A stretch of 64,000 bases of DNA. It comes from an uncultured Oscillospiraceae bacterium (GTDB lineage: Bacteria; Bacillota; Clostridia; Oscillospirales; Oscillospiraceae). The notes beneath the pieces are model-generated. The model was not told where the DNA came from and searched no databases. It saw nothing but the letters and a program-made list of their open reading frames with translations. The DNA is taken from contig CANQQU010000001.1 in NCBI GenBank assembly GCA_947626085.1, positions 1 through 64,000 of the forward strand, in the 5' to 3' direction. Shown piece after piece: positions 1,720-5,368 of this stretch; within the stretch, counting starts at the first letter, position 1, and each line of letters begins with the position of its first letter. The position numbers and the translations under genes are program-made.

Positions 1720-2331
1720 GTGAAAACCAAGATCGTGAAGCTGGCCGACATCAAGCCCGCCCCCTACAACCCCCGGGAGGAGCTGACGGCCCGGGACTAT
1801 GAGTACAAGGCACTGGCCGCGAGCATCGATGAGAACGGCCTGGTCCTCCCCCTGATCGTCAACAAACGTGACGGCTACCTGGTGGGCGGCCATCAGCGGC
1901 TTAACGTACTGCTGGCCAACGGGGAGACCGAGACAAACGCTGTGATCGTGGACCTAGACGAGGCCCAGGCCAAGGCCCTTTGTATTGCCCTGAACAAGAT
2001 CGAGGGTGAGGACGACGCCGGCAAGCTGGCGGATCTGCTGGCAGAGCTGACCGCCGAGAAAGTAAGCCTGCTGTCCACGGGCCTGACCGAATCTGACGTT
2101 GCCGATCTGCTGGGCGACATCCGGGACGCTGAGATCGACGACGAGGGCCCCGCGAAGGTGGCCAAGAAAGAGGACACCGCCGAGGGCGTCCGCTGTCTGG
2201 TGGGCGACTACGTTTTCCGCATGGACGCCGCCGAGTTCGAGGATCTGATCGCGGATGTCCGGGAGAAAGTGGGGTTTACCCAGGAGCTGGAATGTGCCGA
2301 GCTAAAAAGGAGGCTTTTCCATGAAGTATGA
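1720..2331 (+). CDS. ParB/Srx-like N-terminal domain protein 1
   Basis: KLADIKPAPYNPRE…LPLIVNKRDGYLVGGHQRLNVL; GTG start with SD AAAGGAG. Confidence 0.75.
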   Translation: MKTKIVKLADIKPAPYNPREELTARDYEYKALAASIDENGLVLPLIVNKRDGYLVGGHQRLNVLLANGETETNAVIVDLDEAQAKALCIALNKIEGEDDAGKLADLLAELTAEKVSLLSTGLTESDVADLLGDIRDAEIDDEGPAKVAKKEDTAEGVRCLVGDYVFRMDAAEFEDLIADVREKVGFTQELECAELKRRLFHEV

Positions 2332-2989
2332 AACAAGATACCAGGTCTTGAAGATTGCGGACCTGGTGGCCCCTCCCTATAACCCCCGCGAGGACATCGA
2401 GCGCGGCAGCGAGGAATACGAGGCTCTGCGGCGCAGCATCCTGGATCATGACCTGGTGGAGCCCCCGGTGGTGAACCTGGTCAATATGCGCTGCATCGGC
2501 GGTAATCAGCGGTTGACGGTCCTGCGGGACCTAGGCCGCCAAGAGGTCCTATGCTCCGTGATCGAGCAGCACGACGAGCTCCAAGAGAAAAAGCTGTGCC
2601 TGGCTCTGAATCAGATTAATGGCCGCTGGAACAATGACCGCCTAGGCTTCCTGCTCCGGGACGATGATGTCATGGAGTACGAGACCGGCTTCGATGCCGA
2701 GGAGGTGGCCCTCTACAAGCGCCTGGAGGAGGTCAACGCCACCGAAGACACTATGGACGATGACGACACCGAGCCGGAGGAGCTGGACGAGGCCGTGCCA
2801 GAGGAGGAGCCCGAGGACGCCCCGGAGGCCGAAGAGGATACCGGGACCACGCTGGTCCGCATCGGCCATCTGCACTTCAAGGCGGATGTCTCCCAATACC
2901 GCCGCCTGCTGGCGGACATCCGGGACCAAGGCATCTTCGAGAAGGACGAGGTGTGCGAGGCGATCAAGCGAAGATTGCTCTATGGCTGA
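2321..2989 (+). CDS. ParB/Srx-like N-terminal domain protein 2 (acidic C-terminal segment)
   Basis: KIADLVAPPYNPRED…EPPVVNLVNMRCIGGNQRLTVL; start overlaps the end of the previous gene. Confidence 0.75.
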   Translation: MKYETRYQVLKIADLVAPPYNPREDIERGSEEYEALRRSILDHDLVEPPVVNLVNMRCIGGNQRLTVLRDLGRQEVLCSVIEQHDELQEKKLCLALNQINGRWNNDRLGFLLRDDDVMEYETGFDAEEVALYKRLEEVNATEDTMDDDDTEPEELDEAVPEEEPEDAPEAEEDTGTTLVRIGHLHFKADVSQYRRLLADIRDQGIFEKDEVCEAIKRRLLYG

Positions 2990-3119
2990 ATTATAAGGCG
3001 AGCTAATCAGCCGGCTGTGCCAGTTCCAGGACAAGCGGCCCTGGAGCAGAGCGGAATCTCCCCGGAGGGATCTTTGACGATAGCCCGCCAGATCAGAGTG
3101 ACGGAAAGAAGGTTGAACC

Positions 3120-4679
3120 GTGATAAAGCTGGTCCCCATCGACACCGTGAAGGCGTCTGACTATAATCCCCGCCGCAACGATGAAAAGCGGCTGGGCCTT
3201 ACGGAGCTGTCCCTGCGGAAGCTGGGTTTTCTGCTCCCGATCTACGCCGACGAGAGCGGAGAGATACTGTCCGGCCACCAGCGCCAGATCGTGGCCCGCC
3301 GGATGGGCTACACAGAAATCCCCGTGGAAATCGTGCCCGCGAAGGTTCTGGCCGAGCGAAAGGCCGTCAATATCCTGTTTAACCGGGCCACCAACGACTT
3401 GCAGAAGCAGGACACCACCGCCATCATCAAGAAGCGGCTGTATGAAATGGACGTGGAGGCCATGACGGCCCAGCTCCCGGACATCGAGCCGGGGACCCTT
3501 GAATCGTTCCCCTGCGTCCACGCCCTGCACCGCATGGACACGATGAAGCTGGCGAAGCTGAATCACCGGGAGTTCGACACCCACACAAAGCAGCTCGCAA
3601 AGGCGCTGGAGCGCCGCATCGGCTGTTTCATGCCCCTGGTCATCACCGAGGCAGGGAAGGTCATCAACGGAATCGGCCGTCTCCAGGTAGCAGCCGAGGC
3701 CAAGCGGCGTGTGGTCCCTTGCGTGGAGATCACCGAGGACAAAGCCCCCTTCGCCTCCGCCATGTTGAACCTGTTGTCCATGGACTTTGATATGGCCGCC
3801 ACCTATGCCGACGATCTCCGTTATAACTCCTTCATGCGGGAGCGGAACACCCGGGAGACGGACGCCGAGGGAAACGCCGCCCTGGGCGACGGTTTCTTCA
3901 AGGGGATATACCCGGACAATAACGGCCGGGACTTCTGCATTCTGGAGGGCAAGGCTTTGGAGAAGTGGACCTCCCACTACGGCCGCAGCATCGTGGACTT
4001 CGGTGCCGGCAAGCTGTCCAACACCCGGACTCTGCGGAAGGCCGGGGTGTTTGTCTCCGCCTTTGAGCCGTACTTTGTTACTGCGGGAGAAAAGGTCCAT
4101 AAGGGCAAGAGCCTGGAGATCGCCCGCCGCTTCCTGGAGGAGGTGAGCGCGGGCACTAAGTATAGCAGCGTTTTCATTTCCAGCGTGTTCAACAGCGTGC
4201 CCTTCATGGCGGACCGAAAGCATATTGCGGTGATTGCCGCTGCCCTGTGCTACCCGGACGGCATGGCCGTCTGCTGGTGCCAGAGCAGCGAGGCGCCGCA
4301 GTTCGTCAACACAAAGGTGAAATACCTGGCTGCTGAAAAGACCCTGACCTTTGATCTGGACTATGAGCCTAACACCATCCTGGGCGACATCGGCAATCAC
4401 CCGAAGGTGCAGAAGGGCCACACCGAGGTGGAAATGCGAGAGATATTCGCTCCCTGCTTCGAACATCTGCGCCGTATCGAGCTGATACGGAAATTTTGGT
4501 ACGTCGAGGCTGAGCGTCCAGTGGTAGACCCGGCAGCCCTGGCGGCGGCCCTGGACTTCGAGTTCGAGCTTCCTTACCCCGACGGCACCCGCATGGGCCT
4601 GTCCGGCATGGCCCGTGGAGCCTTCGAGCACCGCTTGGGCATCAAATTACCCCCGCCGGAAAAGGAGGCGAGCGTATGA
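3120..4679 (+). CDS. Two ParB-like domains fused to a class I SAM-methyltransferase-like domain
   Basis: VPIDTVKASDYNPRR…LSGHQRQIVARRMGY, second FMPLVITEAGKVINGIGRLQVAAEAKRR, then SIVDFGAGKLSNTRTLRKAGVFVSAFEPY. Confidence 0.65.
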   Translation: MIKLVPIDTVKASDYNPRRNDEKRLGLTELSLRKLGFLLPIYADESGEILSGHQRQIVARRMGYTEIPVEIVPAKVLAERKAVNILFNRATNDLQKQDTTAIIKKRLYEMDVEAMTAQLPDIEPGTLESFPCVHALHRMDTMKLAKLNHREFDTHTKQLAKALERRIGCFMPLVITEAGKVINGIGRLQVAAEAKRRVVPCVEITEDKAPFASAMLNLLSMDFDMAATYADDLRYNSFMRERNTRETDAEGNAALGDGFFKGIYPDNNGRDFCILEGKALEKWTSHYGRSIVDFGAGKLSNTRTLRKAGVFVSAFEPYFVTAGEKVHKGKSLEIARRFLEEVSAGTKYSSVFISSVFNSVPFMADRKHIAVIAAALCYPDGMAVCWCQSSEAPQFVNTKVKYLAAEKTLTFDLDYEPNTILGDIGNHPKVQKGHTEVEMREIFAPCFEHLRRIELIRKFWYVEAERPVVDPAALAAALDFEFELPYPDGTRMGLSGMARGAFEHRLGIKLPPPEKEASV

Positions 4680-5368
4680 TCGACACCGTGACCCCCGGTG
4701 AAAAATGGGAGTTCAACCAGGAGGTGGCCGCCTGCTTTGCCAATATGCTGGAGCGGTCTATCCCAGACTATAAGAGCATGAGGGCTCTGGTCTACAAGAT
4801 CGGGGAAAAGTACGTCAAGCCCGGCACGCTGATCGTAGACATCGGTTGCAGCACGGGCCTGGCGGTGGAGCCCTTCGTGAAGAAGTACAGACAGAACCGC
4901 TTTCTGCTGATCGACAACGCTCCGGCCATGGCGGCCGCCTGCCGGGAGCGATTCAAGGATAACGACAAGATCATGGTCAAGGAGGGCCCCGCCTGGCAAT
5001 TTATGATGCCCGGCCTGGGGGCCTCTCTCATTTTGTCCGTGTTATCGCTCCAGTTCATGCCGACGTCGTACAGACAAAACCTTCTCTCCGACATCTACCA
5101 TGCGATGGCACCCGGGGGGGCTTTCATTCTTGTGGAAAAAATAGTCAGCCAAGATTTGGACGACCTGATGGGCGATCTATACTATGACATGAAGCGGGAG
5201 AACGGTTACACGGACCGCCAGATCATGGAGAAGCGCCGTAGCTTGGAGAATGTGCTGTCACCCCTGCGGCCGGCATGGAACGAGGATATGCTGAGAGCAG
5301 CCGGCTTCCAGCACGTCGATATGTTTTGGCGCTGTTTGAATTTCTGCGGATGGGTAGCCGTTAAGTGA
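4676..5368 (+). CDS. CmoA-like carboxy-S-adenosylmethionine synthase homologue (class I SAM-dependent enzyme)
   Basis: Matches the CmoA pattern along its length: VAACFANMLERSIPDY, PGTLIVDIGCSTG, LIDNAPAMAAACRER, LQFMPTSYRQNLLSDIYHAMAPGGAFILVEK, DMKRENGYTDRQIMEKRRSLENV, AGFQHVDMFWRCLNFCGWVAVK. Confidence 0.75.
   Translation: MIDTVTPGEKWEFNQEVAACFANMLERSIPDYKSMRALVYKIGEKYVKPGTLIVDIGCSTGLAVEPFVKKYRQNRFLLIDNAPAMAAACRERFKDNDKIMVKEGPAWQFMMPGLGASLILSVLSLQFMPTSYRQNLLSDIYHAMAPGGAFILVEKIVSQDLDDLMGDLYYDMKRENGYTDRQIMEKRRSLENVLSPLRPAWNEDMLRAAGFQHVDMFWRCLNFCGWVAVK

What the first reader, a model, noticed from the sequence alone, without database searches (positions are those of the whole stretch)
1720..5368. 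Candidate phage DNA hypermodification cluster: CmoA-like carboxy-SAM synthase next to a double-ParB/methyltransferase fusion
Seen: the ORF at 4676-5368 matches CmoA along its length (RSIPDY, PGT..D.GCS.G, IDNAPAM, LQFMP..YRQ.LL..IY....PGGAF.L.EK, D.KR.NGY....I..KR..LENV, AGF....W.RC.NF). The KR of KRRSLENV appears to align with E. coli CmoA Arg199, reported to bind the Cx-SAM carboxylate (alignment and residue number from memory). Known: CmoA makes carboxy-SAM from SAM and prephenate, normally for tRNA cmo5U. A phage copy overlapping the end of a ParB-ParB-SAM-methyltransferase-like fusion, with two more ParB-like genes upstream of terminase, has no obvious tRNA role. Inference: Cx-SAM is made to carboxymethylate phage DNA (or another phage target), perhaps against host restriction.
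Basis: partly seen in the sequence, partly recalled or inferred. Interest (0 to 1): 0.82.

Follow-up and report, generated by a model that had tools for sequence, protein, structure and literature searches.

The report
Phage carboxy-SAM module with ParB methyltransferase
A gut-bacterial prophage carries a gene for the rare cofactor carboxy-SAM right next to an unstudied DNA-binding-type methyltransferase, and this pair recurs in unrelated phages as an apparent alternative to the recently described enzyme that attaches carboxymethyl groups to phage DNA.

Summary
Window 4676-5368 is a full-length CmoA (carboxy-SAM synthase) homolog. Its start overlaps by 4 bp the stop of a 519-aa protein with two ParB-like domains and a class I methyltransferase domain. 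The general idea, phage CmoA supplying Cx-SAM for DNA carboxymethylation, was published in December 2025 (CmoA/CmoX/CmoY in Synechococcus phage S-B43, PMC12783734). What is new is the partner. This genome has no CmoX (no C5 methyltransferase in the whole assembly) and no CmoY-like ligase. Among 79 non-redundant CmoA loci, 27 have the ParB-ParB-methyltransferase, 44 have CmoX and none has both. Every full-length member of the fusion clade examined lies near CmoA; a sister ParB-methyltransferase family does not, with one exception. CmoA genes have switched between the two partners several times. A third gene, a HAD-like protein at 1160-1654, travels with the fusion (21 of 27) and never with CmoX. 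Best reading: the fusion is a second, non-homologous Cx-SAM-dependent carboxymethyltransferase, probably acting on phage DNA. Inferred, not shown: Cx-SAM use by the fusion, DNA as target, the base modified, and the HAD protein's role. New variant of a known kind.

The parts
314..955 (+). sigma-like / phage transcription-regulator gene upstream of the module (context, probably late-gene regulator)
   Evidence: PHROG 36 transcriptional regulator E=6e-11; conserved in nearest relatives L004, L005, L041, L089
1160..1654 (+). HAD-like protein (phrog_32036), first-motif Asp followed by Leu-Asn (DLNYT), conserved companion of the fusion/CmoA pair
   Evidence: near-invariant D17, N19, T61, K99, E122-S123-N124; in 21 of 27 non-redundant fusion loci and in none with CmoX; strong promoter-like sites just upstream
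1678..2331 (+). stand-alone ParB-like gene 1 (true start probably GTG near 1720)
   Evidence: PF02195 E=3.6e-6, PHROG 620 E=1.9e-40
2321..2989 (+). stand-alone ParB-like gene 2
   Evidence: PHROG 620 E=1.7e-34
3120..4679 (+). ParB-ParB-class I methyltransferase fusion (phrog_5475), proposed Cx-SAM-dependent carboxymethyltransferase; ParB-like units about 1-112 and 128-222, methyltransferase about 262-512, SAM motif VDFGAGK at 292-298
4676..5368 (+). CmoA-like carboxy-SAM synthase (phrog_4752)
5402..5914 (+). terminase small subunit (context)
   Evidence: PHROG 6299 E=1.2e-37
5811..7340 (+). terminase large subunit (context; the real start is probably downstream of 5811)
   Evidence: PHROG 2 E=1.1e-47

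Best explanation
The phage CmoA converts SAM and host prephenate into carboxy-SAM. The ParB-ParB-methyltransferase fusion, translated in overlap with it, uses carboxy-SAM instead of SAM to carboxymethylate a target, most likely bases of the phage's own DNA late in infection, since the cluster leads into the terminase genes. The ParB domains would recruit or position the enzyme on DNA. The fusion thus does the job of the published phage enzyme CmoX with an unrelated catalytic domain, and very likely on a different atom or base, because it lacks the C5-methyltransferase motifs. The HAD-like protein is an accessory of this version of the pathway, step unknown. Shown here: homology, domain order, linkage, exclusivity and partner swapping. 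Inferred: Cx-SAM use by the fusion, DNA as target, role against host restriction.
For: (1) CmoA homology is full length, with Arg199, Tyr39, Asp62, Asp89 and Glu164 equivalents kept. (2) Of 79 non-redundant CmoA loci, 27 carry the fusion, 44 carry CmoX, none carries both (Fisher p about 2e-14). CmoX identity was checked: 52 of 57 have the carboxylate-binding Arg350. (3) Searches seeded with the fusion alone gave 15 viral, 15 prophage and 3 distinct cultured-phage types, all with CmoA nearby. (4) Whole-record search of 18 fusion phages, three of them complete genomes, finds no C5 methyltransferase; the host assembly also has none. (5) The CmoA-linked fusions form one clade with 100/100 support, apart from a sister ParB-Methyltransf_23 family found without CmoA. 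(6) Fusion and CmoA distances correlate, r=0.88, no permutation of 1000 as high. (7) The CmoA tree forces at least 6 changes of fusion/other partner; e.g. fusion L088 groups with CmoX L017/L018 and fusion phage Evaa with CmoX phage TurkishDelight. CmoAs alternate between a proven Cx-SAM user and the fusion. (8) Basic residues R234, R240, R366 and K429 are invariant in the clade and replaced in the sister family. (9) The host makes prephenate and has no CmoB.
Against: No biochemistry. The methyltransferase domain resembles general small-molecule type class I enzymes, not classical DNA methyltransferases, so a protein, RNA or small-molecule target is possible. The carboxylate-binding residue of the fusion is not identified; no model with ligand was available. 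The E. coli adenine-binding Asp117 position is Pro in this CmoA. One sister-type protein (L147) also has CmoA and HAD but lacks the clade's R366. The contig is cut at its left edge, so further genes may be missing.
Confidence: 0.62

Rival explanations
1. The fusion uses Cx-SAM but carboxymethylates something other than DNA, such as a capsid or terminase protein, an RNA or a host defence protein; the ParB domains serve as a nucleotide-dependent switch.
For: The methyltransferase domain matches small-molecule or generic class I enzymes, with no DPPY or PC catalytic motif. ParB-type folds bind various nucleotides and are fused to many enzymes (PMC12704722).
Against: ParB folds in phages are often fused to predicted DNA methyltransferases, and CmoX contigs often carry ParB genes too. 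The proven Cx-SAM user in the same niche acts on DNA.
Confidence: 0.2
2. The fusion is an ordinary SAM-dependent DNA methyltransferase, and CmoA is kept for another reason, for example draining SAM to blunt SAM-dependent host defences.
For: The sister ParB-methyltransferase family works without CmoA. SAM depletion by phage CmoA was raised as a possibility in PMC12783734.
Against: Strict pairing and co-inheritance of fusion and CmoA, exclusion of CmoX, and invariant basic residues specific to the CmoA-linked clade.
Confidence: 0.1
3. CmoA serves tRNA wobble modification (cmo5U) of the host or phage.
For: Sequence annotation as tRNA (cmo5U34)-methyltransferase.
Against: The host assembly has no CmoB and no CmoA outside the prophage; the window has no tRNA genes; the gene's partner is a ParB-methyltransferase.
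Confidence: 0.04
4. The prophage is a standard CmoA/CmoX/CmoY system whose CmoX and CmoY lie in the missing left part.
For: The window starts at a contig end, so part of the prophage is not seen.
Against: No C5 methyltransferase in the 97.75%-complete assembly, in 18 fusion-phage records including three complete genomes, or in any fusion locus.
Confidence: 0.04

Closest known systems
CmoA-CmoX-CmoY DNA carboxymethylation system of Synechococcus phage S-B43 (PMC12783734)
   Same: Phage CmoA next to a SAM-fold transferase; interchangeable CmoA lineages; ParB genes nearby; same presumed cofactor.
   Different: No C5-methyltransferase-type CmoX and no CmoY-like ligase in most members. The transferase is a ParB-ParB-class I methyltransferase with no profile similarity to CmoX, and a HAD-like gene is added.
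E. coli CmoA/CmoB tRNA cmo5U pathway
   Same: CmoA homology including Arg199; Cx-SAM synthase chemistry presumed.
   Different: No CmoB, no hydroxyuridine step known here, phage setting.
phage ParB-Methyltransf_23 fusions without CmoA (L094, L124-L149; Bacteroides phage BS-TP3, Escherichia phage 613R2)
   Same: Same ParB plus methyltransferase architecture and homologous sequence, often also upstream of terminase.
   Different: About 460 aa with no recognisable second ParB signature, no CmoA, and different residues at R234, R240, R366 and K429.
engineered M.MpeI N374K making 5-carboxymethylcytosine (as cited in PMC12783734)
   Same: Carboxymethylation of DNA from Cx-SAM.
   Different: An engineered C5-methyltransferase; the fusion is a different enzyme class.

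Membership tests
CmoA (carboxy-SAM synthase) | full-length sequence homology to CmoA | tested here: met
   4gek E=1.3e-39 over 10-230; PHROG 4752 E=4.5e-78
CmoA (carboxy-SAM synthase) | score above the NCBIfam equivalog cut-off | tested here: not met
   TIGR00740 159.2 bits against a cut-off of 193.3. The cut-off appears set for bacterial tRNA-pathway CmoAs; only 1 of 14 control genomes passed it. This is a naming threshold, not a test of function.
CmoA (carboxy-SAM synthase) | Arg199 carboxylate salt bridge | tested here: met
   Aligned to the R of EKRRSLENV. Not strictly diagnostic: the proven S-B43 enzyme has E at this position with K next.
CmoA (carboxy-SAM synthase) | makes Cx-SAM from SAM and prephenate | not testable with these tools
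   needs an enzyme assay; host prephenate enzymes are present
CmoA-CmoX-CmoY DNA carboxymethylation system | CmoX, a C5-methyltransferase homolog with SPPC and Arg350 | tested here: not met
   no PF00145 in the host assembly or in 18 fusion-phage records
CmoA-CmoX-CmoY DNA carboxymethylation system | CmoY, an asparagine-synthetase-like amide ligase | tested here: not met
   The only match in this contig is host guaA. Of 18 fusion phages only HJ05 has a PP-loop protein, 7 kb away. The missing left arm leaves some doubt for the window phage.
phrog_5475 ParB-ParB-methyltransferase | full-length profile match and two ParB units plus SAM motif | tested here: met
   E=4.5e-168; hhalign of the two units 96%; VDFGAGK motif invariant
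classical DNA methyltransferases (N6A/N4C or C5) | DPPY-type or PC catalytic motif IV | tested here: not met
   motif IV region reads SSVFNSVPF; no Pfam DNA methyltransferase match
tRNA cmo5U pathway | CmoB partner | tested here: not met
   no PF08003 match in the host assembly

The most novel reading that the evidence does not exclude
The ParB-ParB-methyltransferase is a second, independently evolved Cx-SAM-dependent DNA carboxymethyltransferase that modifies a position other than cytosine C5 (for example an exocyclic amino group), giving a DNA base not yet described, with the HAD-like protein needed for a further or preparatory step.
Probability: 0.42. Interest if true: 0.78.

Novelty: new variant of a known kind. 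Interest (0 to 1): 0.66.

Why it matters
The 2025 paper describing CmoX reported that a preliminary search found no adenine N6- or cytosine N4-carboxymethyltransferase associated with CmoA, and characterised only a C5-type enzyme. A widespread CmoA-bound family with an unrelated catalytic domain would be a second route to carboxylated phage DNA, a likely source of a new base, and a candidate tool for placing carboxyl handles on DNA. Members occur in cultured phages, so the claim can be tested by mass spectrometry of virion DNA.

Tried and rejected
Single-protein searches of viral contigs with the window proteins found nothing; alignments were needed. Apparent ParB-CmoA gene fusions among database hits (P0066, P0076, P0119, P0222) look like deletion or assembly chimeras and were not used as evidence. 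The Asn-synthase match in the window is host guaA, not CmoY. The pairing of the HAD gene with CmoX was checked and does not occur. Profile search of the HAD family against solved structures gave nothing, so its activity stays unassigned. A shared carboxylate-binding residue was sought by comparing the CmoA-linked and CmoA-less families: R366 and K429 are the best candidates, but L147 has an Arg one helical turn earlier (N358+4) and lacks R366, so no residue is assigned. Papers on restriction resistance of Samunavirus DNA were searched for without success.

Full report
What is in the window. The window is the first 64 kb of a contig of a 2.1 Mb, 91-contig genome. The nearest named relatives of the gene pair are prophages of uncultured Oscillospiraceae and Flavonifractor-like gut bacteria. 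A prophage runs from the contig edge to about 32 kb; host guaA follows at 32639-34273. The left arm is missing. In order: sigma-like regulator (314-955), HAD-like protein (1160-1654), two ParB genes (1678-2331, 2321-2989), the ParB-ParB-methyltransferase fusion (3120-4679), CmoA (4676-5368), small and large terminase. Promoter-like sites lie just before the HAD gene.

The CmoA is real. It aligns over its full length with E. coli CmoA (4gek, 1.3e-39) and H. influenzae YecO. The Arg199 equivalent is kept, and the AF2 model has the helix and strand order of a class I methyltransferase. It scores below the NCBIfam equivalog cut-off. Arg199 should not be over-read: the S-B43 enzyme, shown to be active in PMC12783734 and identical to L103, has E-K where E. 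coli has R-S. The CmoA start codon overlaps the fusion stop (ATGA), and this 4-bp overlap recurs in many relatives.

The fusion. Two ParB-like units are supported by profile comparison (96%) and by the model (mean pLDDT 86). The C-terminal part has the class I SAM motif VDFGAGK and, by fold, resembles general class I methyltransferases. It has neither DPPY nor PC motifs and no profile similarity to CmoX.

What is already known. PMC12783734 (Nat Commun, December 2025) showed that Synechococcus phage S-B43 makes Cx-SAM with a phage CmoA and uses CmoX, a C5-methyltransferase homolog, to make 5-carboxymethylcytosine, which CmoY joins to glycine. The paper catalogued CmoA in CmoX-containing contigs and reported no N6- or N4-type candidate. 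I found no published account of the partner seen here in the held library.

Linkage tests. I collected CmoA-bearing loci from IMG/VR, cultured phages and GTDB genomes and classified them with profiles for the fusion, CmoX, CmoY and the HAD protein. After removing near-copies (CmoA at 90% identity or more), 79 remain: fusion with HAD 21, fusion alone 6, CmoX 29, CmoX with CmoY 15, CmoY only 2, none 6. Fusion and CmoX never occur together (Fisher p about 2e-14; related loci are not fully independent, so the p value is only a guide). Of the 57 CmoX homologs, 52 have Arg350. Starting instead from the fusion, all 15 viral and 15 genome loci with the fusion have CmoA beside it. So do the three divergent cultured types: Gordonia Evaa, Aeromonas HJ05 and Pseudomonas PA_L9. 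Searching whole records of 18 fusion phages, including those three complete genomes, gave no C5 methyltransferase. One, HJ05, has a PP-loop protein 7 kb away that might play a CmoY-like part.

A natural control. A sister family of ParB-Methyltransf_23 proteins (about 460 aa) occurs without CmoA in all but one locus; no CmoA was found in 15 whole records, though several of these may be fragments. In the tree the CmoA-linked proteins form one side of a branch with 100/100 support. Residues invariant on the CmoA-linked side and changed on the other include R234, R240, P361, F362, D365, R366 and K429. These are candidates for cofactor or target selectivity, not demonstrated contacts. The exception, L147, carries a sister-type protein together with CmoA and a HAD protein and has an Arg four residues after N358, where the other sister proteins have Ser, Thr or Asn. 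This may be an independent gain of Cx-SAM use, but it is a single case.

Partner swapping. Distances among fusions and among their CmoAs correlate (r=0.88; none of 1000 permutations as high). Yet in the CmoA tree fusion-partnered and CmoX-partnered CmoAs interdigitate: well-supported branches force at least 6 changes for the fusion label (the bootstrap had not fully settled, so support values are rough). The same CmoA lineages serve both partners, which argues that both draw on the same product, Cx-SAM.

The HAD-like gene. It keeps the first Asp of the HAD motif but has Asn or His at the position where phosphatases of this superfamily usually have the second Asp (DLNYT, DLHYT; the superfamily motif is from general knowledge). 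It is found with fusions, including in Gordonia Evaa, and never with CmoX. Its only functional hint is a weak match to a polynucleotide kinase PHROG. I leave its step open.

Host context. The host assembly has chorismate mutase and prephenate dehydratase, so the CmoA co-substrate should exist. It has no other CmoA, no CmoB and no C5 methyltransferase. The window has no tRNA genes.

Verdict. What remains new is a distinct, widespread partner class for phage CmoA. Estimated chances: Cx-SAM made by this CmoA about 0.9; Cx-SAM used by the fusion about 0.8; phage DNA as target about 0.7-0.75.

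Noticed in passing
window:1160-1654: HAD-like gene with DLNYT first motif, conserved beside the ParB-ParB-methyltransferase/CmoA pair and absent beside CmoX; activity unknown.
   Followed up: partly
L147 7989-10827 (IMGVR_UViG_3300012940_000027): A sister-family ParB-methyltransferase, otherwise seen without CmoA, sits with CmoA and a HAD gene; its CmoA has Ala at the Arg199 position followed by Lys. 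Possible independent recruitment of Cx-SAM.
   Followed up: partly
L162 10287-11504 (Aeromonas phage HJ05): A PP-loop (SGGTDS) asparagine-synthetase-like protein in a fusion-type phage, the only candidate amide ligase found with this partner class.
   Followed up: partly
L103 5962-6657 (identical to S-B43 CmoA): The experimentally active phage CmoA aligns Glu, not Arg, at E. coli position 199, so Arg199 conservation is not a reliable test for Cx-SAM synthases.
   Followed up: yes
window:28315-31099: Three small ORFs (28315-28689, 30222-30623, 30722-31099) start alike (MIFNP/MILNP...) and look like tandem paralogs at the end of the tail module.
   Followed up: no
window:32639-34273: Host guaA (GMP synthase) lies at the right edge of the prophage, suggesting integration next to or at guaA.
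   Followed up: no
L098 (Alcaligenes phage Afa-NA1), L065, L066: CmoA-bearing phages with neither CmoX nor the fusion in the flanks; their Cx-SAM user is unknown and may be a third class.
   Followed up: no
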